A program made the translations under genes and the position numbers. From a virus, in IMG/VR virus record IMGVR_UViG_3300050821_012817, positions 1 through 33,292 of that record: DNA of 33,292 nt; one strand, given 5' to 3'. The notes beneath the pieces were generated by a model. It saw nothing but the letters and a program-made list of their open reading frames with translations. It was not told where the DNA came from and ran no database searches. Shown piece after piece: positions 7,787 through 33,292 of this stretch. How positions within the stretch are numbered: the stretch's first letter is position 1; the number at the start of each line of letters is the position of its first letter.

Positions 7787-8286
7787 CCGATAACGATTGG
7801 GTCGTCACCGTTGTTGTCGATACCGAGAAGACAACGGAGGAAATAGTCCGCTGGGAGGTGAACCTGTCGGAGTTCGACGGCTCCATTGCGCGCGTACCCG
7901 ACTGGGGCATCCACGCGACGCTCTACATGCCCGGTAAGTGGCCGCTGCGCACCGCGGTGGAGCAGGCCATCCGGGAGATCGACAAGACGCACGGCGTGGG
8001 ACCGGCCCCAAGAATCGACGGCGCCTACGCGATCCGCGAATCGGACTACCGTCGAATCTCCGATATGCCCAAAGCCAAACTCCTCAGCACGACGGAATCC
8101 CTTGCGTTGGTGGGAGTGTCCCGCTCGCGCTTTTGTCAGTTGCGTTCCACCGACGACAACTTCCCCAAGCCAGCAGCCATACTTGGCAAGCGCCCCCTAT
8201 GGGATGAGCGCGCCATGCAGAAGTACGCGCTGAACCGCAACATCAAACCGGGCAGGTCCAAGACATTGGAGCCAGTCACCGCATAG
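7783..8286 (+). CDS. two-part protein with a C-terminal AlpA/excisionase-like HTH
   Basis: 167 residues; its ATG overlaps the preceding stop. Residues 1-95 have no recognisable motif (WVVTVVVDTEKTTEEIVRWE, then DWGIHATLYMPGKWPL). From about residue 100 it reads LLSTTESLALVGVSRSRF, then QLRSTDDNFPKPAAILGK and LWDERAMQKYALNR, the pattern of MerR/AlpA-like excisionase HTH domains ('l-t--E-a-llgvs-s----l----dFP-P-----r-lW---ev--wl'). It could regulate phage promoters, and it is one candidate in this window for the palindrome-binding factor. A stem-loop at 8304-8334 follows its stop. Confidence 0.7.
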   Translation: MTDNDWVVTVVVDTEKTTEEIVRWEVNLSEFDGSIARVPDWGIHATLYMPGKWPLRTAVEQAIREIDKTHGVGPAPRIDGAYAIRESDYRRISDMPKAKLLSTTESLALVGVSRSRFCQLRSTDDNFPKPAAILGKRPLWDERAMQKYALNRNIKPGRSKTLEPVTA

Positions 8287-8303
8287 ACCAGTTGACGAAC
8301 GGT

Positions 8304-8334
8304 GCAGCCGGGCGACTACCTCCCGCTCGGCTGC
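8304..8334 (+). terminator. stem-loop after the 7783 gene
   Basis: GCAGCCGGGCG (8304-8314) pairs with CGCTCGGCTGC (8324-8334), 11 bp with one G-U pair and a nine-base loop. There is no T tract, so it is a terminator-like or mRNA-stabilising hairpin. Confidence 0.45.
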
Positions 8335-8356
8335 GCCGCCAACTTAGAAGGTAAGG

Positions 8357-8575
8357 GTGAGAAAGCCAAAGGAAGATGAGATCCCGGTCCTGCTGGCCGG
8401 TGGCATAGCCGCCTTCTTCTGGCCAGCAGGACTTCTCTGCTTTGCGTTCGCCCCAGATCGCGACGGCACCGTGTGGTGCATGGGTGCTATTTGTCTTGCC
8501 GTCGCCATACTCTTCACCGGCGTAGCCGGGATCGTGCTGGCCGTCGATCTGGGCTTGCGGGAGAAAAAGAAGTAG
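8357..8575 (+). CDS. small membrane protein with two transmembrane segments
   Basis: 72 residues from GTG 8357, with AGAAGG five bases upstream. After a short charged start (MRKPKEDEIP) come two hydrophobic helices, about residues 10-31 (VLLAGGIAAFFWPAGLLCFA) and 40-62 (WCMGAICLAVAILFTGVAGI), joined by a short FAPDRDG loop, and a basic tail LREKKK. The positive tail suggests both ends are cytoplasmic. It is small with two helices, but nothing beyond size suggests a holin. The first G-rich repeat array begins at its stop codon. Confidence 0.6.
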   Translation: MRKPKEDEIPVLLAGGIAAFFWPAGLLCFAFAPDRDGTVWCMGAICLAVAILFTGVAGIVLAVDLGLREKKK

Positions 8576-8890
8576 GCAGTCGAGGCATACGCGGCGCGAG
8601 GTATGGCATGGTGCGGCGCGGCAGGGCCTGGTGCGGCAAGGCGGTCATGGCGTGGCCGGGTCTGGACCGGCTGGGCTTGGTTAGGTCGGGCATGGCGCGG
8701 TGGGGCAGGGCGTGGCAGTCGAGGCAGCGCATGGTCTGGCTCAGCAAGGCGGCGCGTGGCAAGGCAGTCTAGGTCTGGCACGGCCGCGCGCGGTGGGGCC
8801 CGGTTTGGCAGGGCACGTCAAGGCAGTCACGGCACGGCTTGGTCCGGCACGGCACGGTGTGGCGTTTCTTGGTAGGGCTTGGCAGGGCCG
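8575..8890 (+). repeat. G-rich 5-bp repeat array 1 (GGYNN) with GGCAGTC heptamers
   Basis: About 315 bp made largely of pentamers that begin with GG on the plus strand (GGCAT, GGTGC, GGCGC, GGCAG, GGCCT and so on), in phase for long runs. The heptamer GGCAGTC breaks the phase at 8575, 8714, 8763 and 8822. Open frames here are by-products of the period-5 composition. GG every five bases on one strand could form two-tetrad G-quadruplexes. A matching array lies at 10270-10545. Confidence 0.85.
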
Positions 8891-8901
8891 GCAAAACCCT
8901 T

Positions 8902-8929
8902 TTGAAGCGCCAGCGCGCTGGCGTATAAT
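8902..8929 (+). promoter_or_regulatory. rightward palindrome-spacer promoter, best match
   Basis: -35 TTGAAG (8902-8907), a 16-bp spacer that is entirely palindromic (CGCCAGCGCGCTGGCG, 8908-8923) and a perfect -10 TATAAT (8924-8929). It drives the two genes at 9024 and 9782. Confidence 0.85.
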
Positions 8930-8935
8930 TAGTAG

Positions 8936-8961
8936 GTGAGGTTGGCAAGAGGCCAGCTCAC
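8936..8961 (+). other. 5'-leader stem-loop after the 8902 promoter
   Basis: GTGAG-G-TTGGC pairs with GCCAG-CTCAC around an AAGAG loop: ten pairs with one bulged G. It starts seven bases after the -10, at the expected transcript start. Confidence 0.6.
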
Positions 8962-9023
8962 CACATGTCGAGGCGAGATCGGAATGGTACAAGGCCATCC
9001 GACCACGAAAGGATTAGCCAGAC

Positions 9024-9713
9024 ATGGCTCCTCGCACCAAGACGGCCACGGAAGCCGATGGTGAGGCAAAAGTAGCGGCAGCAGAAGGCACAGCGCCTCC
9101 TGTCCAAATTCAGCGCATCCAAGTGGAGCGCATATTCGTCCCCATTGTGGGGACGGCCCCTTTGATCGTGCACCGCTTTGACGAGAAGGCGCGGCGCATG
9201 ATGCTGGAGAAGCAGACAGCCCGTAAGTCCCTGCGGGAGGTCCGCGACCCGCAGGCGGAGTATGAGGCCTGCTTGTACAAGATCTCCCGTAACGGCCAGG
9301 AGAGGTACGGCTTCCCCGCTAGCGCATTCCGCAAGGCCACCATTGGCGCCGCTCGGTTCTACGACAAGTCGGTGTCGATGACTGGACTGCGGCAGATGTT
9401 CATGGTCAAGGGCGTCTTGACCAAGGCAGATCCGTTGGCGCTGGTCGATATCGAAGGCAAGCCTGAGCCCCGAGAGGACACGGTGCGCCTACCCAACGGC
9501 AACGCTGAGGTTCGTTTCCGCGCCATGTTTGCAGAGTGGAGCGCCATGCTCGAAATCGAGTACGTGGCCAGCAGCATCTTCCAGGACTCGCTGTTGTCGC
9601 TGGTGGATGCCGGCGGTCAGTTCGTCGGTGTCGGGGACTGGCGTCCGGAGAAGACCGGCCAGTTTGGCACCTACGAGATCAGTGGAGACATCCAAAAGGA
9701 AAAGGTCGACTGA
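9024..9713 (+). CDS. 229-residue phage protein, unknown; C-terminal Gly-rich WRP motif
   Basis: The ATG at 9024 has GAAAGGA upstream. The N-terminal 35 residues are Ala/Thr/Glu-rich. Residues about 37-60 read RIFVPIVGTAPLIVHRFDEK, followed by a charged helix. The middle has RYGFPASAFRKATIGAARFY, and the end GGQFVGVGDWRPEKTGQFGT followed by YEI. I recognise this as a phage protein type without a firm function. The end pattern (GVGxWRPE-x5-GxFGxY) is reminiscent of the glycine-rich loops of RAMP/Cas7-like folds, which is only a hypothesis. With the next gene it forms a cassette bounded by two repeat arrays. Confidence 0.65.
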   Translation: MAPRTKTATEADGEAKVAAAEGTAPPVQIQRIQVERIFVPIVGTAPLIVHRFDEKARRMMLEKQTARKSLREVRDPQAEYEACLYKISRNGQERYGFPASAFRKATIGAARFYDKSVSMTGLRQMFMVKGVLTKADPLALVDIEGKPEPREDTVRLPNGNAEVRFRAMFAEWSAMLEIEYVASSIFQDSLLSLVDAGGQFVGVGDWRPEKTGQFGTYEISGDIQKEKVD

Positions 9714-9724
9714 ACCCAATGACT

Positions 9725-9763
9725 GGCGGCGGTGGCTCTTGGCGCATGGGAGCCGCCGCCGCC
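9725..9763 (+). terminator. strong GC stem-loop between the two cassette genes
   Basis: GGCGGCGGTGGCTC (9725-9738) pairs with GAGCCGCCGCCGCC (9750-9763), 14 bp with one G-U pair and an 11-base loop. Only TTATT follows, so it may attenuate rather than fully terminate transcription into the 9782 gene. Confidence 0.55.
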
Positions 9764-9781
9764 TTATTGAGAAAGGCAAGC

Positions 9782-10255
9782 ATGAGCGCGATATTGGAAG
9801 ACTATTTTCGGGACTGGTACAACTCCCACGGGAGGAGTCTGGACCTAGACGACATCCACGATGATGTCGCTAACCCGACGCACCCACTGCATGACCGTTA
9901 TGAGTGGGACGACGAGAAGGCTAGCCGTGAATACCGCAAGCAGCAGATCTCCCGCGATATTCGCAGCTGTCGAGTCGTCTATGTGTCAGACAAGGGTCGG
10001 CAAGCGGCAGCGCGTGAGTACCTGGCCAACCGGGAGATTGGCCGCGGCTTGAGTGGCTACACGGCGGCTAAGGAGGCGCTACAAGATCCCGACACCCTGC
10101 GCTTCCTCGAGATGACATTGGATGCAGAGGTCAAGAACCTCCGTCGTCGGTTTGAGCATCTCGTAGGGTACGCCTCCACCCTGGAACGGGAAGCTAATGC
10201 TTCCCGCAAGCGCAAGAAGGCCAAGAGGATTGAGGCCATCGAGCCGCCTGCCTAA
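9782..10255 (+). CDS. 157-residue charged helical protein, unknown
   Basis: ATG 9782 follows GAAAGG by five bases; an earlier in-frame start would run through the 9725-9763 hairpin and is unlikely. The protein is strongly charged and helical: MSAILEDYFRDWYNSHGR, then HPLHDRYEWDDEKASREYRK, ISRDIRSCRVVYVSDKGR and a long helix DAEVKNLRRRFEHLVGYAST, ending in a basic patch ASRKRKKAKRIE. The basic tail could contact nucleic acid. No domain was recognised. It follows the 9024 gene under the same promoter and is bounded downstream by repeat array 2. Confidence 0.65.
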   Translation: MSAILEDYFRDWYNSHGRSLDLDDIHDDVANPTHPLHDRYEWDDEKASREYRKQQISRDIRSCRVVYVSDKGRQAAAREYLANREIGRGLSGYTAAKEALQDPDTLRFLEMTLDAEVKNLRRRFEHLVGYASTLEREANASRKRKKAKRIEAIEPPA

Positions 10256-10269
10256 GCCATTTTTCCTCG

Positions 10270-10545
10270 AACCTGGGTATGGCCGGGCGGGGTTTGGCGA
10301 GGTTCGGCAACGCGAGGCAGTCAGCACACGGCAGGGCCTGCAGGGAACTCGGTTGGGCACGGCCTGGCACGGCCAGGCAGTCGTGGTGCGGCTTGGCGTG
10401 GCACGGCAACGCCAGGCAATGCGTGGCACGGCAGTCGTGGTTAGGCATGGATTGGCCATGCACCGCAGGGCTAGGCGCGGCAAGGCAGGCATGGTGCGGT
10501 ATGGCGGAGCGACGCGTGGTGGGGCTCGGCCTGGCAGGGCAATGC
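10270..10545 (+). repeat. G-rich 5-bp repeat array 2 (GGYNN) with GGCAGTC heptamers
   Basis: About 275 bp of the same composition and orientation as array 1, lying between the convergent genes ending at 10255 and 10545. GGCAGTC occurs at 10316, 10376 and 10430, spaced 60 and 54 bases. Short shared strings with array 1 (GGCATGGTGCGG, GGCACGGC) mark the two as related sequences. Confidence 0.83.
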
Positions 10546-11537
10546 TAAAGAGCGGCGCAGGCGGCCCAGCAGGAGAGCGCAGAACCCCAGGAGGTCACCT
10601 GGCCATATTCCTCATAGATGTGGCTGGCGTCCTTAGCCTCTTGCTCCAAGGAGGAGCCGTGTGGCATCTGTGGGTCTGAGGCATTGCGGATGATGAGCCA
10701 CGGCAGCTTGGCGTCCTCGAGCGCGTAGGCCATCGCTGCATCGTCCATCTCCACTGCGCGGGCCTTGGGGTCGAAGGTCTGTAGGCCATAGCTGTTCTCT
10801 TCATCGTCGAAGGCGAAGAAGTCCGTGGTGATGATGTGAGCAGGGTCGTCGCCGTCCAGCCAGAGCTGAGCCGGCCGCGTGAGGTTTGGCAGCGCTGAGC
10901 TTGTCTTCTGAAGCAGCGGCGTCACCTGTGCATATGTCGCTTCATCGATCGACGCCGTAGTCGTATACGCCTGACCGGCGAAGGCTGCCCCTTTGAACTG
11001 CTTGCGGCAGTCCCACGACACGTGGCCCGACACCACCACGTCGCCCAGCTGCGTAGTGCCCTGCACCGCGCCAGCCGTACCTGTAGAGATGACCAGGCTG
11101 GGCTCGGCCTGCTTGACCCACTGCTTCCACGCCGTGGCGATCGGCAGGCGCGGTCCATCCGTAGCTGGATGCAGGTTGGACTTCATCACCACGACCTTGG
11201 TGTCACCGATGGTGATCTGCGCCCAAATGCCGGAGCTGCGCGCCTGGAGAGCTGGCGCGCGGTGGCCCTCAATCAGCTGGTGGATAACGGAGAACCCGTT
11301 GCGGTAATTAGTCCAATCATCCGACGACAAGCCGGGTGTGAGGATATCTGCTAACGCCTCACCCTCAGCCTTGGTATAGGTGACGATGAGAACGTCGGCC
11401 TTGGGGAGGGGGTCATTGTCACCCGGTTTACCTGGAACGACCTTGGGCTTCTTGTCTTCCGGTAGCGGCAGCTCCGGGGGGAGGCGGCGGTGGGGGCTGG
11501 CAAGGATGCGGCGATACGCAAGTTCCAAGGTGTCCAT
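10545..11537 (-). CDS. nucleoside phosphorylase / MTA-SAH nucleosidase superfamily protein
   Basis: 330 residues from ATG 11535-11537. An upstream TTG in the same frame was rejected because a different frame there encodes a better small protein. Residues about 47-68 (DVLIVTYTKAEGEALADIL) open the fold; STGTAGAVQGTTQLGDVVVS (151-170) is the phosphate/ribose-loop region; AVEMDDAAMAYALEDAKLPW (261-280) carries the VEM ribose-binding motif; IIRNASDPQM holds a candidate catalytic Asp288. Such enzymes split N-glycosidic bonds of nucleosides. Substrate cannot be read here. It ends the leftward operon of glycosyltransferases. It could serve nucleotide salvage or remove a nucleotide-like signal or cofactor. 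Confidence 0.78.
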   Translation of the reverse strand: MDTLELAYRRILASPHRRLPPELPLPEDKKPKVVPGKPGDNDPLPKADVLIVTYTKAEGEALADILTPGLSSDDWTNYRNGFSVIHQLIEGHRAPALQARSSGIWAQITIGDTKVVVMKSNLHPATDGPRLPIATAWKQWVKQAEPSLVISTGTAGAVQGTTQLGDVVVSGHVSWDCRKQFKGAAFAGQAYTTTASIDEATYAQVTPLLQKTSSALPNLTRPAQLWLDGDDPAHIITTDFFAFDDEENSYGLQTFDPKARAVEMDDAAMAYALEDAKLPWLIIRNASDPQMPHGSSLEQEAKDASHIYEEYGQVTSWGSALSCWAACAAL

Positions 11538-11547
11538 ACGAGCCAGA

Positions 11548-11685
11548 TTAAACCCGGCGTTGCACGTTGGCCTGTCTCTTTGCCTCTTGTTCGAAGACAA
11601 ATTCACGAAATTTACGCCAGTCGTGGAACCCAAACAGGATGCACATAGTTTGGTAGTCGCGCTCAGACAGACGCTGACTGCTCAA
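11548..11685 (-). CDS. 45-residue helical mini-protein
   Basis: The frame starts at TTG 11683-11685 with GGAGG (11697-11701) upstream and stops nine bases before the phosphorylase ATG; a weaker ATG start lies at 11644-11646. The product reads MSSQRLSERDYQTMCILFGF, then HDWRKFREFVFEQEAKRQAN and VQRRV. Its balanced helical composition contrasts with the unlikely peptide in the phosphorylase frame over the same bases. It overlaps the glycosyltransferase end by 23 bases. No family was recognised. Confidence 0.5.
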   Translation of the reverse strand: MSSQRLSERDYQTMCILFGFHDWRKFREFVFEQEAKRQANVQRRV

Positions 11686-12349
11686 CGTCGACCTGTCCTC
11701 CATCGTCGTCCTCCCGTGTTTTAAGCAGATGTCGCATCAGCCACGGCCTCTTGCCGGCGCGGATGTACGGCTCTATTAGCGGTCGATTACGTGTCTCGTC
11801 GCGGGTCCAGCTCGGTTCCTGATCATGATTTATTGAGTAGACCGTACCGGGCATCCGGTTAACGCTGGATAGCGTCTCTGCAACGATATGGAAAGCTGCG
11901 TCTTCATACCCCCATCCATAGAATTCCGGCGGCTGCCCTCCCAGTCGCCAATACTCATCACGCGTACAGATCATCACCGCGCCGAGGCCTTTGGGATATT
12001 CCAGCAGGACTGGCGCGTCAACAAATTCCTCATACGGTCGGTCCACCCACTCTGCAGGAATGAGCACCCAGCGCGTAAAGGGCCAAGTAACACCCTCCGG
12101 GTGTTCTACCGCCGCCAATACGTTCTCCAGCGGGGGGATGGTGTCTGCATCAGCTATTACCACGACCTCCGACCGCGCCAGTCCTACGGCTCTATTCCTG
12201 GCCTGAGCAGCACTGAAGACATCACCGTCGCAATCCGCAGTAATGATGGGCCAACCAGTCTGTTCCCAGAAGGCCATCGTGCGCTCAAACGGAGGGAGTC
12301 GTGTAGGAGAGGACCGCCAAGGCACACATACGGTGACCTCAGGCTTCAT
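11663..12349 (-). CDS. glycosyltransferase, GT-A fold
   Basis: 228 residues from ATG 12347-12349, overlapping the preceding stop (ATGA) and following GGGGG. It starts MKPEVTVCVPWRSSPTRLPP; VVVIADADTIPPLENV contains the DxD-like metal motif at about residues 67-69; FYGWGYEDAAFHIVAET contains the GWGxED acceptor-site motif of the galactosyltransferase and GalNAc-transferase group at about 145-150. It should move a sugar from a nucleotide donor to an acceptor, probably a phage structural protein or cell-wall glycan. It works beside the GT25-like protein upstream and perhaps with the sugar enzymes at 24160-27050. Confidence 0.8.
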   Translation of the reverse strand: MKPEVTVCVPWRSSPTRLPPFERTMAFWEQTGWPIITADCDGDVFSAAQARNRAVGLARSEVVVIADADTIPPLENVLAAVEHPEGVTWPFTRWVLIPAEWVDRPYEEFVDAPVLLEYPKGLGAVMICTRDEYWRLGGQPPEFYGWGYEDAAFHIVAETLSSVNRMPGTVYSINHDQEPSWTRDETRNRPLIEPYIRAGKRPWLMRHLLKTREDDDGGQVDVEQSASV

Positions 12350-12594
12350 GAAGGCCCCCGCATAACCCCGCAGTGCACACACGACGTAGCACCCTTGAGA
12401 AACTCGTGCGGGCAGGCGGTCAGATCAACCTTGGACATAGGAACAGGCACTGGGGCACCGTGGTACCCATCGCACGTACAGGGTCGGCTGCCGGTGAAGC
12501 ATGCTCGAGTCTCATTCCAGCCCGTGAGAACCTGGACCCGGCAGCCCTCGTCGCCATGTTGCTCAGGCAAGTGTCCGCAGTTGGTGCATGCCAT
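12346..12594 (-). CDS. zinc-ribbon mini-protein
   Basis: About 82 residues from ATG 12592-12594 (GGAA nine to ten bases upstream); a TTG at 12651 would extend it over the previous stop. It carries CTNCGHLPEQHGDEGC near the start, a central CTCDGYHG, and CPHEFLKGATSCVHCG near the end, giving two likely zinc sites. It overlaps the glycosyltransferase start at ATGA. Mini-proteins like this are frequent in actinobacteriophages and mostly uncharacterised. Confidence 0.65.
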   Translation of the reverse strand: MACTNCGHLPEQHGDEGCRVQVLTGWNETRACFTGSRPCTCDGYHGAPVPVPMSKVDLTACPHEFLKGATSCVHCGVMRGPS

Positions 12595-15406: not shown

Positions 15407-15456
15407 AGCAGGGATTTTTGGAACACAACCCCAATCAACAAAGGAGCAACAACAAG

Positions 15457-16263
15457 ATGGCCAACCCATTCGTCAAGGCGTGGAAGTATCTGATGGCGCT
15501 GTTCAACGCGAAGATCGACGAGCGCGCCGATCCGAAAGTCCAGATCCAACAGGCGATCGAGGAGGCGCAGCGCCAACACCAGGCGCTGAGTCAGCAAGCA
15601 GCCCAAGTCATCGGCAACCAGCGCCAGCTGGAGATCCGACTGAACCGCCAACTGGCCGACATTGAGAAGCTGCAGGTCAACGTGCGCCAGGCGGTCACTC
15701 TGGCCGATCAAGCCACCGACCCCGCCAAGGCCGCGGAGTACAACAACGCAGCTGAATCGTTTGCAGCCCAGCTGGTCGGCGCCGAGCAGAACGTCGAGGA
15801 CATGAAGGCGTTGCATGACCAAGCGCTCTCCGCGGCGCAGAAAGCCAAGCAGGCCGTAGAGCAGAATGCGATGGCGTTGCAACAGCGATTGGCGGAGCGC
15901 ACCAAGCTGCTAAGTCAGCTGGAGCAGGCGAAGATGCAGGAGCAGGTCAGCGCCTCACTGCGGTCGATGAGCGAGATCGCCGTACCAGGGACTACCCCCA
16001 GCTTGGACGATGTCCGCGACAAGATCGAGCGCCGGTACGCCAACGCCTTGGGTAGCGCGGAGCTGGCCGAGAACAGCGTCCAGGGACGCATGTTGGAGGT
16101 CGAGTCGGCCGGTGTGCACGTGGCCGGTCAGCAGCGCCTCGAGCAGATCCGCGCCACTATGCGCGGTGAAGCACTGCCAGCGGGTGAGGACGCAGGTAAG
16201 GCCCGGCTAGACGCCATCGTGGCAGCAGGCACCCCGCCTGCCGCTGAGAGCGTCCAGCAGTAG
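15457..16263 (+). CDS. pspA: PspA/IM30 family protein (phage shock protein A homologue)
   Basis: 268 residues. ATG 15457 has AAAGGAG upstream; a TTG at 15418 gives an unlikely leader. It begins [20 protein letters not shown], an amphipathic first helix, followed by the long Gln/Ala/Glu coiled-coil hairpin ([20 protein letters not shown], then [20 protein letters not shown], and [20 protein letters not shown]) and the conserved [16 protein letters not shown] helix. From memory this is strikingly close to the mycobacterial 35 kDa antigen PspA, including the RGEALPAG tail. PspA proteins belong to the ESCRT-III-like superfamily and polymerise on damaged inner membranes. Full length and intact, it is presumably functional and host-derived. 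A hairpin follows, and a flotillin gene lies 1.1 kb on. Confidence 0.93.
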
Positions 16264-17340: not shown

Positions 17341-17374
17341 CCGCTCAACCCGGCCACAAATGGAAGTAGGAGAA

Positions 17375-18823
17375 ATGCTCGGTTATCGAGTACCAGCGCC
17401 TGATCAGGCAATGCTGATCTCAGGCGGCAAGCAGAAGGCAGAGGGGGGCGGTCAGTTTAAGATCGTCACTGGCCATGGAGCCTGGGTATTGCCCGGATTC
17501 CGCAAGGTCCGATTCCTCAGCTTGGAAACCCACAAGGTCGAGGTTGCAGAGAAGTGTTACACCAAGCACGGCATTACCGTCGAGGTTGAAGCGGTCGTGG
17601 CGTTCAAGGTCGACAACACGCCTACCGCAATCACGGCAGCAGCGCAGCGTTTCCTCAACGACCAAAAGAAGGGAGCCATGGAGGACCTGACGCAGAAGAT
17701 CTTTGTCGGCCACCTCCGCGGCATCATTGGTCGGTTGACCATTGAGGAGCTCATCCAAGAGCGCGAGAAGCTCACCATGGAAGTCTTGACCGGCTCCCAA
17801 AATGAGATGTCGGTGATGGGCCTGACCGTCGATTCACTACAGATTGAAGCCTTCAACGACGGGGGGAGTAACTACATCGCCAACATGGCCAAACCGCAGA
17901 TGGCTGCGCTGGAGCAGGCTGCCAAGATCGCACAGGCCAAGGCTGACCAGGCCTCCCAAGCTGAGCAGCAAAAGTCACTGCGTGAGCAGGCTAGGGAAGC
18001 ACGCGACACTGAGATTGCCAATGCTCAATACGCCGCAGAGACCCAGGCTGCTGCTGCTGAGGCCGCACAGGCTGGACCGCTGGCAACCGCTGAGCATCAG
18101 CAGAAGGTTATTGCTATGCAAAGCGACCTGGCCCAACGCAACGCAGAGCTGCGCCAGCAACAACTGGTCGCTGAGGTGATCAAGCCGGCGGAAGCGGCTG
18201 CCGAACAGGCTCGTATCCAAGCCCAGGGCCAAGCTGCTGCTGCGGAGGCTAACGCTGAGCGTGTCAAGTGGGAAGCGTCGGCCAAGGCCAACAAAGATCG
18301 CCAAGAGGCTGAGGCGGCTGCCGACGTGGCTCGAGCCAAGGCCACCGCCGATCGCGACAGTGCACTACTGGCTGCGGAGGCTATCGAACGCCAGGGTGAG
18401 GCCGACGCAACCGCAGATCTTGCCAGAGGCAATGCTGCTGCCGCCGCGAAGAAAGCCTATGGGTTGGCTGAGGCGGCTGGTGAGGAAGCCAAGGCCAAGG
18501 CATACGCCGCGGATGAGGGCGCCCAGCTACGGATGGCGGAGATTAACAACCAGCCGTTGATTGCCGAGGCAATTGCGCGAGGCTTAGGACTCAACGGCGC
18601 CAACCTGACCATCCTCGATGGTCCGGAGGGGTTGACCAAGACGATGGCCACCATTGCGCCGATGATCAGCATGGTTGCTCAGATGTTTGGTGGCCAGAGC
18701 GCCAAGCCCGATACCAACGGGGCTCCGATCACTGAAACCCTGCAGAGGGTACGCGCTGAGGAGAAGGCGTGGGATGCGATCACTAACCAGGCCGTAGGGG
18801 CCACCGCGGACGGCAAGATCTAA
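17375..18823 (+). CDS. flotillin-like SPFH / band-7 protein
   Basis: About 482 residues from ATG 17375 (GGAG lies very close, two bases away); an ATG at 17360 without a ribosome site adds five residues. The SPFH domain covers about residues 5-190: YRVPAPDQAMLISGGKQK, VTGHGAWVLPGFRKVRFLSL, TKHGITVEVEAVVAFKV, GHLRGIIGRLTIEELIQERE and MGLTVDSLQIEAF. Residues about 195-420 are the Ala/Gln/Glu coiled coil typical of flotillins (LREQAREARDTEIANAQYAA, AELRQQQLVAEVIKPAEAAA). The C-terminus GLNGANLTILDGPEGL matches the family end. There is no N-terminal membrane helix, so association must be peripheral. Flotillins form membrane scaffolds and in Bacillus work alongside PspA. From memory it resembles cellular actinobacterial flotillins. 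Confidence 0.9.
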   Translation: MLGYRVPAPDQAMLISGGKQKAEGGGQFKIVTGHGAWVLPGFRKVRFLSLETHKVEVAEKCYTKHGITVEVEAVVAFKVDNTPTAITAAAQRFLNDQKKGAMEDLTQKIFVGHLRGIIGRLTIEELIQEREKLTMEVLTGSQNEMSVMGLTVDSLQIEAFNDGGSNYIANMAKPQMAALEQAAKIAQAKADQASQAEQQKSLREQAREARDTEIANAQYAAETQAAAAEAAQAGPLATAEHQQKVIAMQSDLAQRNAELRQQQLVAEVIKPAEAAAEQARIQAQGQAAAAEANAERVKWEASAKANKDRQEAEAAADVARAKATADRDSALLAAEAIERQGEADATADLARGNAAAAAKKAYGLAEAAGEEAKAKAYAADEGAQLRMAEINNQPLIAEAIARGLGLNGANLTILDGPEGLTKTMATIAPMISMVAQMFGGQSAKPDTNGAPITETLQRVRAEEKAWDAITNQAVGATADGKI

Positions 18824-28038: not shown

Positions 28039-28500
28039 ATGAGCGTCTTGCGCTTTGCACTCCAGCCGGGGGGATGTACGTTGCTCCCCTTCGATACAGT
28101 GGCGGGACGATGCGCTCGTTGTGGAAACGGCCTGGTGGGAGGCCAAGCTCGCTGGTGTAGCACCACCTGTGAGCAGCAGTACAACCGCAACCACAACTGG
28201 AGTACTGCACGTCAGGCAGCCTTACAGCGGGATGGGCACCGCTGCGTTAAGTGCAACTGGATGCCGGAGAATTGCGGCTATTTGAACAACGGCCAGTTTG
28301 TCCTGTGGAGCAGAAGCAACCTAACCCTGGAACCAGAGTCCAACTGGCTTGAGGTCAACCACATCATCCCGCGGCGGGGAGCTGGCTACGACTTCGGCTG
28401 CCACCATCACCTGGCCACACTCGAGACCCTCTGCCACCAGTGTCACGTCAAAGTGACTCGCCGGCAGCGGCGCCAGTGGAGCCGGCCGCTGGCGGTCTAA
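28039..28500 (+). CDS. HNH endonuclease
   Basis: 153 residues from ATG 28039, though no ribosome site is visible; ATGs at 27967 or a TTG at 28081 are alternatives. It carries CARCGNGLVGGQARWCSTTC (four-Cys zinc knuckle), a basic helix (WSTARQAALQRDGHRCVKC), then WLEVNHIIPRRGAGY and LETLCHQCHVKVTRRQ, the core of the HNH fold with the catalytic His in EVNHI. Such phage enzymes can be free-standing homing nucleases or packaging/defence nucleases. It is not next to the terminase, so a homing or host-DNA role fits better. Confidence 0.85.
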   Translation: MSVLRFALQPGGCTLLPFDTVAGRCARCGNGLVGGQARWCSTTCEQQYNRNHNWSTARQAALQRDGHRCVKCNWMPENCGYLNNGQFVLWSRSNLTLEPESNWLEVNHIIPRRGAGYDFGCHHHLATLETLCHQCHVKVTRRQRRQWSRPLAV

Positions 28501-28511
28501 GGTTCTGCTTC

Positions 28512-29297
28512 ATGGACCCGCAACGCTATATCGAGCTGGTGAAGAGCAGCCTGACCGTTTCCCTCTACAAGGACTACGACGGTGACATCTGGCAACCGCA
28601 GGGCTGGCGTCAGCGGCTAGCGAGCTGGCTGCTGCCGAGGAACTTGAGGGTCAGCACCCCGGTGGTGGCTGAGGACCGGGAGAACGGTAAGGACCACGTA
28701 CCCACCCTCGCGCTCACCATGGTGGGAAGGCGCCGGCTGGACAACCTGCATGAATGCGTGGAGACAGCCCTGGAAGAGAACATCGCCGGTGACTTAATCG
28801 AGACTGGTGTCTGGAGGGGAGGCTGCCTGATCCTCATGCAAGCGATCCTGACGGCCCACGGCGTGACCGACCGCACCGTGTTTGCTGCCGACAGCTTTGA
28901 GGGGATGCCTAAAGGGGAGTATGCCCAGGACAAACACTTCAACAGCTGGGACTTCGACGGCATCGCCGTGTCAATGGAGCAGGTCAAGCAGAACCTTACC
29001 CGCTACGGGCTCTTGGACGGTACGGTCTTCCTTCCAGGCTGGTTTAAGGACACGCTGCCCGAAGCGCCGGATGGCCCGCTTGCTGTGGTCCGTCTGGATG
29101 GTGACTTCTATGAGAGCACCATGACGGGCCTGCAGTACCTCTACCCACGGTTGTCCTCCGGTGGCTTCCTGATTGTGGATGACTACAATTGCCTCGATGC
29201 GTGCAAGCAAGCAGTAGACGACTACAGAGAACAGCACAGGATTACCGTACCGATGAAATCCGTGGACTGGGCTGGCATCTACTGGCGCAAGGACTAG
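28512..29297 (+). CDS. TylF/macrocin O-methyltransferase family protein (copy 2)
   Basis: 261 residues; ATG 28512 follows TAAGG. The family pattern is very clear: IAGDLIETGVWRGGCLILMQ (E97), FAADSFEGMPKGEYAQDKHF, FLPGWFKDTLPEAPDGPLAV, VVRLDGDFYESTMTGLQYLY (D196, D198) and FLIVDDYNCLDACKQAVDDY (D223, D224). It O-methylates a sugar with S-adenosylmethionine, with a metal held by the Asp residues. The N-terminal 60 residues are the usual helical lid. It lies in a different operon from copy 1, so the two may modify different positions. Its 3' end overlaps a convergent gene by four bases. Confidence 0.9.
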   Translation: MDPQRYIELVKSSLTVSLYKDYDGDIWQPQGWRQRLASWLLPRNLRVSTPVVAEDRENGKDHVPTLALTMVGRRRLDNLHECVETALEENIAGDLIETGVWRGGCLILMQAILTAHGVTDRTVFAADSFEGMPKGEYAQDKHFNSWDFDGIAVSMEQVKQNLTRYGLLDGTVFLPGWFKDTLPEAPDGPLAVVRLDGDFYESTMTGLQYLYPRLSSGGFLIVDDYNCLDACKQAVDDYREQHRITVPMKSVDWAGIYWRKD

Positions 29298-32282: not shown

Positions 32283-32304
32283 GCCGGCCCCCCCGGGGGC
32301 CGGC
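32283..32304. repeat. inverted repeat 1, GC only
   Basis: GCCGGCCCCC (32283-32292) and GGGGGCCGGC (32295-32304), spacer CC. First of three perfect inverted repeats in 120 bases. Confidence 0.7.
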
Positions 32305-32315
32305 GCGCGCGCCAA

Positions 32316-32342
32316 AACCCGCGCCGCGTAGCGGCGCGGGTT
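32316..32342. repeat. inverted repeat 2
   Basis: AACCCGCGCCGC (32316-32327) and GCGGCGCGGGTT (32331-32342), loop GTA; perfect 12-bp arms. Confidence 0.75.
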
Positions 32343-32360
32343 GCGCGCGGGTTGTGTTGC

Positions 32361-32400
32361 GCCGCAAGGGTTTTGGCGCTTGCGCCAAAACCCTTGCGGC
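32361..32400. repeat. inverted repeat 3, 19-bp perfect arms
   Basis: Arms at 32361-32379 and 32382-32400 with a two-base spacer (TT), each containing GGGTTTTGGCGC or its complement. It lies eight bases past the stop of the leftward gene at 32409 and may terminate it, or extrude as a cruciform. Confidence 0.8.
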
Positions 32401-32408
32401 AGTTGGCG

Positions 32409-32738
32409 TTACGCGGTGGCCACGGCGGCCGCGTCAGCGGCCGCCGCTGCCGCGTACCACGCGTGGTGGTAGGCCTTTGCCGCGTAGTACACGGCCACGT
32501 CATCCTTGCCGGTACCGACCGTGACGTTGACGCCGCTAGCGTCCACCGCGTAAGCGGTCCACTTGGCAGCGGCAGTCCGACCGTCGGCGCGCAACCTAAA
32601 CGCTACGGTACCGTCGGCCAACAGACCGTCGGCGGCTTTACCCTTGGTTGACTTAGTACCAAGCTTGCCATTGGCCGGTACCCATTGCAGACGCGGCGCA
32701 TTGCTTGGCTTGCTTGCTGGCTTACGTGTGGTGGTCAT
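32409..32738 (-). CDS. 109-residue Ala/Lys-rich protein, unknown
   Basis: ATG 32736-32738 follows AAGGGGAC. The N-terminus is basic (MTTTRKPASKPSNAPRLQWV), the middle beta-like (GTVAFRLRADGRTAAAKWTA, then YAVDASGVNVTVGTGKDDVA), and the C-terminus is a run of alanines (AYHHAWYAAAAAADAAAVAT). The basic start and Ala-rich helix recall small nucleoid-type proteins, but no family was recognised. It stands alone between structured regions. Confidence 0.62.
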   Translation of the reverse strand: MTTTRKPASKPSNAPRLQWVPANGKLGTKSTKGKAADGLLADGTVAFRLRADGRTAAAKWTAYAVDASGVNVTVGTGKDDVAVYYAAKAYHHAWYAAAAAADAAAVATA

Positions 32739-33292
32739 TTTGTCCCCTTGCGATAAATTGTGTGTACTGCCTTACGTCAGTAACAACGTGGTGGCATGTC
32801 CAGTTATTTCCGAAAATCCCCCAATGTGTCCAGCGTCACATTTGCGCGGCAGTGTGGCGCGCGTCACAATTGCCGGCTAGTTGCATAGGCTAACTAACTG
32901 CCGGCGTGGTGGACGCTTAGCTTGGCTAGCGTTTTGGCCGGCAAGAGCGCGCCGGCACACACTCCGCGGCTGCTACGAATGGCGCAAGAAAGCGCCGGCC
33001 CCGTTCGCAATGCGGAAAGCTTTTGGCGGGGAAGGCGCCGGCACAGCCGGAGGGGGGAGTCCCGGGGAAGGCCTTCGCGCGCGGAGTCGGCGAAGCGCCG
33101 GCACGGTCGAAGGGGTTCAGCACCCGGCGAAGCCAGGGCCGGCGCCGGCACGGCGGGTTCGCGATGGGAATAGGAGCCGGCAGCACAGGGAAGGGGCCGG
33201 GCTCGAATAGAGGCCAGGCACTGGGCAAGGGCCGGGCCAGAGGGGATGGCTGTGCCAGCGCCGAGTGGCCGTGGTGGAGTCCCCACAGAGTG
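32739..33292. other. non-coding, structure-rich right end
   Basis: No convincing gene. It holds two near-identical 13-mers, GCGTCACATTTGC (32833-32845) and GCGTCACAATTGC (32861-32873), 28 bases apart, and then from about 32930 a series of GCCGGC-centred units (such as GCGCCGGCAC) in a purine-rich plus strand. Long frames here are composition by-products. It may carry a promoter for the 32409 gene; no clear -10 was seen. Confidence 0.5.
32930..33200 (+). repeat. degenerate GCGCCGGCAC repeat tract
   Basis: The core GCCGGC recurs (for example in gcgcgccggcac, aagcgccggccc, aggcgccggcac, aagcgccggcac, ggcgccggcac, gagccggcag) at intervals of about 20-60 bases with purine-rich spacers containing GGGGAAGG-type runs. 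The units are too diverged for a simple tandem repeat. Confidence 0.55.

What the first reader, a model, noticed from the sequence alone, without database searches (positions are those of the whole stretch)
8575..10545. A two-gene cassette flanked by paired G-rich period-5 arrays
The arrays at 8575-8890 and 10270-10545 share orientation, the GGYNN period and seven GGCAGTC heptamers spaced often by 49-60 bases. They border exactly the promoter at 8902 and the genes at 9024 and 9782. The arrays could allow homologous exchange of the cassette, act as G-quadruplex-forming RNA or DNA that stops polymerases, or soak up an RNA-binding protein.
Basis: partly seen in the sequence, partly recalled or inferred. 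Interest (0 to 1): 0.7.

Follow-up and report, generated by a model that had tools for sequence, protein, structure and literature searches.

The report
Phage-borne RNA-guided VIPR system
The two odd G-rich repeat arrays and the two genes between them are a phage-carried VIPR system, a recently described relative of CRISPR in which a small protein uses five-base repeats as a guide RNA to recognise DNA, most likely that of rival phages.

Summary
The gene at 9024-9713 encodes a Cas7/Csm3-like RAMP protein (AlphaFold pLDDT 88.7; Foldseek best hit Csm complex subunit, E 2.1e-6) homologous to the Vipr of phage SUSP1. GGYNN arrays lie on the sense strand beside this gene in most relatives: 136 of 187 loci against 0 of 187 antisense. 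This is the anatomy of VIPR, reported in a 2026 preprint (PMC13142463): Vipr protein, accessory protein and guide RNAs of GGY/NN repeats whose NN pairs read DNA with a one-base skip. The GGCAGTC heptamers are separators that cut the arrays into about ten guides. Across 843 guides from related loci, the one-base skip gave 10 strong target matches; other skips gave 0, 1 and 0. One guide recurs in seven relatives and decodes to the HExxH motif of ImmA/IrrE peptidase genes; all three genome sites found with it lie in such genes. The target of this phage's own guides was not found. Recombination and quadruplex readings are not supported. New member of a known, very new kind.

The parts
8575..8894 (+). 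Guide array 1: GGYNN repeats, upstream of vipr, in blocks separated by 4-base units (GGCA, once GGCG, once GGCC)
   Evidence: HMM parse 8595-8894, 61 units
8595..8639 (+). guide block b0, NN = GA AT AT GC GC AG CT GC AA (its 5' part 8579-8594 is irregular)
8644..8713 (+). guide block b1, 14 units, NN = AT GT CG CT CC TG TT TA CG AT GC GG AG GT
8718..8762 (+). guide block b2, 9 units
8767..8821 (+). guide block b3, 11 units
8826..8885 (+). guide block b4, 12 units
8902..8929 (+). sigma-70-like promoter (TTGAAG, 16, TATAAT) of the vipr operon
   Evidence: 10 of 12 consensus matches
8908..8923 (.). 16-bp palindrome CGCCAGCGCGCTGGCG filling the promoter spacer, probable operator; related copies elsewhere in the window
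9024..9713 (+). vipr gene: RAMP (Cas7/Csm3-like) protein, 229 aa, phrog_4652
9782..10255 (+). vap (vipr accessory) gene, 157 aa, phrog_15946; helical protein with long C-terminal helix
10276..10547 (+). Guide array 2: GGYNN repeats downstream of vap
   Evidence: HMM parse 55 units
10276..10315 (+). guide block c0, 8 units
10320..10375 (+). block c1, irregular, probably decayed
10380..10429 (+). guide block c2, 10 units
10434..10483 (+). guide block c3, 10 units
10488..10547 (+). guide block c4, 12 units as parsed, the last (TGCTA) doubtful

Best explanation
It is a VIPR system, probably of the staggered-array sort. Shown here: the first gene is a homologue of the Vipr of SUSP1 with a Cas7-like RAMP fold; the arrays are GGY/NN repeats cut into blocks of about 8-14 units by 4-base separators, here mostly GGCA|GTC; gene and sense-strand array travel together across phages of very different hosts; in related loci the NN pairs match targets under a one-base skip. 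Inferred from the preprint and not shown for this phage: the arrays are transcribed and give vrRNAs of roughly one block each; Vipr subunits coat the RNA, each holding one GGY; the NN pairs read double-stranded DNA as NNxNNxNN, and binding represses genes of competing phages or prophages; the second gene (Vap) assists. The promoter palindrome suggests that a regulator of the phage controls the operon.
For: Fold: AlphaFold2 model pLDDT 88.7, pTM 0.82; all 50 Foldseek rows shown are CRISPR effector-complex entries, best 6xn3_F E 2.1e-6; VIA Z 11.9, rmsd 3.6 over 157 residues to a Csm subunit. Homology: an HMM from 70 window-clade proteins, none of the SUSP1 group, finds the SUSP1 protein at E 1.5e-14 (Z set to 1000); profile comparison 99.1%. 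Association: sense array score 12 or more near the gene in 136 of 187 loci (91 of 120 dereplicated) against antisense 0 of 187, far sense 2 of 187, and 0 of 43 contigs not chosen for vipr. Blocks: 4-base separators most often 9-13 units apart. Skip rule: 10 of 843 guides strong at skip 1, 0/1/0 at skips 0/2/3, 0/1/0 in three shuffles. Recurrent guide in 7 loci decodes in codon register to an AHELGH-like motif; 3 of 3 genome sites lie in PF06114 genes, 0 in the reversed-pattern control. No self-target better than shuffles. Literature: PMC13142463.
Against: No convincing target for this phage's own guides: seeds of five guides in viral contigs and two whole guides in 396 Actinomycetota genomes (0 of 396 each) gave only weak candidates. 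No conserved 3' tail was seen; no Rfam match reached its gathering score in 8200-11000. Block c1 and some units are degenerate. 9 of 120 dereplicated loci have no array called, some cut by a contig end. Vap has no confident fold match (best E 1.1). Best matches of all guides are not enriched in vipr genes overall (216 of 843 at skip 1 against 225-243 for shuffles). Transcription was not measured.
Confidence: 0.93

Rival explanations
1. The arrays are binding sites (DNA or RNA) for the first gene's product, used for autoregulation or genome function, not guides.
For: Array and gene are linked on the same strand; the palindromic promoter lies between them.
Against: NN letters vary freely while GGY is kept, blocks have guide-like length, and NN strings match other phages' genes in relatives and an enzyme motif in codon register. 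SUSP1 work shows guide function (PMC13142463, read).
Confidence: 0.05
2. The arrays are homologous-recombination handles that exchange the cassette.
For: Arrays flank both sides here; modules sit at different genome places, for example between tail genes in Gordonia phages ODay and Ecliptus.
Against: Longest exact shared stretch 12 bases, no more than NN-permuted arrays; two-sided flanking in only 25 of 120 loci; cargo is conserved.
Confidence: 0.01
3. It is a VIPR locus, but a relic: the guides of this phage are decayed and no longer target anything.
For: Block c1 is irregular and several units lack the first G; no target found.
Against: vipr and vap are intact open frames with conserved residues; b1 has 14 regular units; uncultivated rivals are poorly sampled.
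Confidence: 0.12

Closest known systems
VIPR of Escherichia phage SUSP1 (type II, PMC13142463)
   Same: Homologous Vipr, accessory gene next to it (SUSP1 locus L188); GGY/NN arrays in flanking intergenic regions, seen here in the closely related Shigella phage L008 and in the SUSP1 contig L164
   Different: SUSP1 guides are separate units each with a structured 3' tail (preprint); here continuous arrays cut by GGCA|GTC separators, no tail seen, and a second gene of different sequence
Staggered-array VIPRs mentioned in PMC13142463 (fig. S18, not readable here)
   Same: Continuous arrays with frame shifts every 9-13 units fit the words 'staggered arrays with overlapping vrRNAs'
   Different: Type number could not be assigned; the supplement was not available
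Class 1 CRISPR-Cas backbone proteins (Csm3, Cas7)
   Same: RAMP fold, best structural matches
   Different: No cas operon or repeat-spacer array recognised; 5-base repeats with two variable letters instead of contiguous spacers
PHROG families phrog_4652 and phrog_15946
   Same: The two genes match them at E 4e-33 and 5.8e-17
   Different: Both are listed as unknown function

Membership tests
VIPR system (PMC13142463) | Vipr protein with RAMP fold, small, in a phage | tested here: met
   portal, prohead protease and terminase genes in the window. Thumb and glycine-loop geometry were not inspected atom by atom
VIPR system (PMC13142463) | Sequence homology to a characterised Vipr (SUSP1) | tested here: met
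   E 1.5e-14 at Z 1000; hhalign 99.1%
VIPR system (PMC13142463) | Arrays of 9-16 YNNGG repeats with conserved GGY and variable NN | tested here: met
   regular blocks of 8-14 units here
VIPR system (PMC13142463) | Array intergenic beside vipr (on the sense strand in relatives) | tested here: met
VIPR system (PMC13142463) | Accessory gene (vap), predicted DNA interaction | tested here: inconclusive
   gene present and conserved; model pLDDT 94.9 but no confident structural match
VIPR system (PMC13142463) | NN letters read targets with a one-base skip | tested here: inconclusive
   supported in relatives; not shown for this window's guides
VIPR system (PMC13142463) | Invariable structured 3' tail of vrRNA | tested here: inconclusive
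   none recognised by eye; one search gave only a sub-threshold Rfam match outside the arrays
VIPR system (PMC13142463) | vrRNA is transcribed and co-purifies with Vipr | not testable with these tools
   needs RNA sequencing and pull-down
CRISPR-Cas | Repeat-spacer array plus cas genes | tested here: not met
   the array is GGYNN without longer repeats and spacers; of the frames scanned none matched a Cas family, though not every window frame was scanned

The most novel reading that the evidence does not exclude
In this staggered-array clade the guides are aimed at codons of conserved protein motifs, skipping the wobble base, so that one guide serves against a whole gene family of rivals: the active site of ImmA/IrrE peptidases (immunity switch) and the vipr gene of competing phages. 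A guide bank then acts as a set of protein-family probes.
Probability: 0.5. Interest if true: 0.75.

Novelty: new member of a known kind. Interest (0 to 1): 0.58.

Why it matters
VIPR was described only in 2026, with biochemistry for one type. These calls place it in an uncultivated phage and in isolates that laboratories can grow (Gordonia phages UmaThurman, Pipp, ODay, Ecliptus; Mycobacterium phages Quico, Brocalys), turn the two PHROG families of unknown function into likely vipr and vap, read the heptamers as guide separators, and give a target prediction (ImmA/IrrE active-site codons) that can be tested at once.

Tried and rejected
Single-protein search of viral contigs for the first gene found nothing; closer alignments found 80 and 80 loci, the best of 106 and 118, and 14 in genomes. 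Rfam: only a sub-threshold Acido-1 match at 9702-9760, between the genes. NCBIfam and PADLOC gave only chance-level hits.

Targets of the window's own guides. b1 seed: 13 contig stretches; best extension 25 of 28 in L189 and L201 and 23 of 28 in L198, in an ORF that I take for a terminase (recalled, not searched), with the skip base not at the wobble position; my rough chance estimate is 0.005 for the block, so I do not claim it. b4 seed: 9 stretches; L206 and L208 match 21 of 24, the first 20 letters all, in codon register of a 285-codon open frame of unknown function; not significant after 9 hits. b3 seed: 2 stretches, best 18 of 22. c4: 4 stretches, best 18 of 24; c2: 15 stretches, best 19 of 20 in L221, expected by chance. 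b0, b2, c0, c1 and c3 were not scanned in the collections. b1 and b4 at up to 3 mismatches: 0 of 396 genomes each. Nearest own-genome matches are at shuffle level for the nine blocks tried, c1 left out.

Skip test: in a first version two skip-3 hits fell in poorly masked array remains; wider masking removed them. One guide (L031) matching a vipr gene at 25 of 28 appears only, as it misses the 10% limit. L188 and L001 (duplicates) were dropped before the counts; L001 was dropped. 3 of the 10 strong matches lie in vipr genes of other loci, all in codon register; vipr frames are 11% of that database, so the location alone is not significant. Decayed-ImmA-guide idea for block c1: alignment score 21 against a background 95th percentile of 25, not claimed.

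Full report
What was checked. The window is an uncultivated virus record of 33,292 bases with portal, prohead protease and terminase genes. The two arrays are real: period 5, GGY fixed, NN variable, both on the + strand, and within the window runs of five or more GG at exact five-base steps occur only there. They enclose a promoter-like site and two intact genes, A (9024-9713) and B (9782-10255), both of PHROG families of unknown function.

The link between gene and array. Homologues of A and B in named phages of Mycobacterium, Gordonia and a cyanophage, and of A in a Pseudomonas phage and a Shigella phage of the SUSP1 group, also carry GGYNN (or GGTNN) arrays beside them on the same strand, at varying places: upstream of A, between A and B, or after B. 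I collected 187 loci with A (plus named phages; window included, its duplicate L001 left out). A windowed count of GG-5-GG pairs of 12 or more lies within 1.5 kb of A on the sense strand in 136 of 187 loci, antisense in 0 of 187, far from A in 2 of 187; dereplicated at 85%, 91, 0 and 2 of 120; the maximum of five shuffles reaches 12 in 3 of 187. At the laxer threshold of 8 the counts are 171, 7, 4 and 40 of 187. A separate parser calls an array in 111 of 120 dereplicated loci. Of 43 contigs fetched for other reasons, 0 reach 12. Hosts named in genome records include Streptomyces, Aeromicrobium, Sphingomonas, Sphingopyxis, Lachnospiraceae, Faecalibacterium and a Bacteroidetes MAG. B homologues were found in 99 loci, median 18 bases after A.

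What gene A is. With 74 homologues AlphaFold2 gives pLDDT 88.7 and pTM 0.82. The 50 Foldseek rows shown are all CRISPR effector complexes, best Csm at E 2.1e-6; VIA-align Z 11.9 to a Csm subunit. A is thus a RAMP protein. Its invariant residues include R166, W172, G198, G202, P208 and G215.

What is known. A search for pentanucleotide repeats, bacteriophage and noncoding RNA returned one paper, a 2026 preprint on VIPR. I read its main text in parts 1-3 of 4; the rest of the figure legends and the supplement were not read. It describes a phage RAMP protein, Vipr, an accessory protein, and guide RNAs of 9-16 YNNGG repeats whose NN letters read double-stranded DNA with a one-base skip, usually at the codon wobble position, tested for SUSP1, with a Pseudomonas fulva prophage system also expressed. 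It mentions staggered arrays among seven types. An HMM of 70 window-clade A proteins finds the SUSP1 protein at E 1.5e-14 with Z set to 1000, so membership does not rest on resemblance of the arrays alone. Two further paper searches listed no other paper that I recognise as being on VIPR (9 of 9 and 8 of 842 rows seen, titles and abstract starts only).

Anatomy of the arrays. Across the loci the parser finds 12,215 units of 5 bases and 1,138 of 4; the 4-base unit is most often GGCA followed by GGC, and successive 4-base units most often lie 9-13 units apart, mode 11. In the window the separator mostly reads GGCA|GTC, hence the seven heptamers; GGCGGTC, GGCCGGC and GGCAGGC complete the set. This gives about ten blocks, one of them (c1) irregular.

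Does the code hold here? I decoded 843 distinct guides from the collected loci and searched them against the same loci, arrays masked (1.2 Mb, 0.2 Mb masked). Strong matches (at most 10% mismatch over 20 or more letters, or none over 16-18): skip 0, 0; skip 1, 10; skip 2, 1; skip 3, 0; three NN-order shuffles at skip 1: 0, 1, 0. Three of the ten lie in vipr genes of other loci, in codon register with the skip at the wobble base; this location alone is not significant, since vipr frames make up 11% of the database. Looser matches show little excess (within 20%: 283 at skip 1 against 273-280 in shuffles and 239-274 at other skips), so most guides find no target in this small database.

A recurrent guide. 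Among 630 guides from dereplicated loci, one recurs in seven loci of the window's clade: L014, L017, L018, L020, L025, L028, L031. Its reverse complement, read with the skip at the wobble base, gives T-x-A-H-(D/E)-L-G-H or close variants in all seven (M or I for L in L025; L014 starts at the A-A before H). The HExxH reading as an ImmA/IrrE zinc-peptidase motif was recalled first and then tested: the L031 guide at up to 2 of 24 mismatches hits three sites in 2 of 396 Actinomycetota genomes, none perfect, with 0 in the reversed-pattern control; all three lie at that motif in genes matching Peptidase_M78 (PF06114, E 2.9e-12 to 4.2e-26). Only this one of the seven guides was searched in genomes. 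That ImmA/IrrE proteins act in phage immunity switches is recalled knowledge. The words IrrE, metalloprotease and tRNA do not occur in the preprint's main text.

The window's own guides. No convincing target was found in five seed scans of viral contigs or two scans of 396 genomes (details under Tried and rejected), and no self-target above shuffles. This is the main gap.

Regulation. The promoter spacer of the vipr operon is a perfect 16-bp palindrome. Within 3 mismatches it occurs 10 times in the window, expected 0.8, 0 of 100 shuffles reaching 10; several copies are followed by TATAAT, TATAAC or TATACT. So vipr seems to belong to a phage-wide regulon, perhaps of its repressor (inference).

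Verdict. A VIPR system, new member of a known kind; mechanism by homology, with partial independent support for the code in relatives.

Noticed in passing
window 17, 6957, 8908, 14719, 14773, 16567, 16971, 21018, 31972, 32143: A 16-bp palindrome (NGCCAGCGCGCTGGCN) recurs 10 times within 3 mismatches (expected 0.8); at 8908, 21018, 6957, 14719 and 14773 it is followed directly by TATAAT, TATACT or TATAAC, a probable operator-promoter module of a phage regulon.
   Followed up: partly
L010 2828, 2963, 4284, 4427; L009 3494; L014 1021; L047 4055: Perfect tRNA T-arm-like hairpins (5-bp stem, TTCRANY loop) sit in or beside the guide arrays of phage LittleE and three other loci (4 of 120 dereplicated loci), perhaps RNase P or tRNA-like processing signals between guides; ARAGORN calls no full tRNA in L009 or L010.
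   Followed up: partly
L005 3980-5245; L012 2980-4293; L010 3046-4208: In Gordonia phages ODay and Ecliptus, and in LittleE on the opposite strand, the vipr module is inserted among tail genes next to the tape measure gene.
   Followed up: no
L013 2833-4050: In Mycobacterium phage Gorge one annotated frame covers both the vipr and vap homologies, either a fusion or a frameshift.
   Followed up: no
window 32283-33182: GC-rich stretch at the contig end with 12 of the window's 34 GCCGGC hexamers.
   Followed up: no
window 15418-16263 and 17360-18823: The phage carries a PspA/IM30 protein and a Band 7 (SPFH) protein near each other, unusual membrane-stress type cargo.
   Followed up: no
window 10545-11633, 11663-12382, 28440-29297: Nucleoside-phosphorylase-like, galactosyltransferase-like and TylF methyltransferase genes in the same window.
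   Followed up: no
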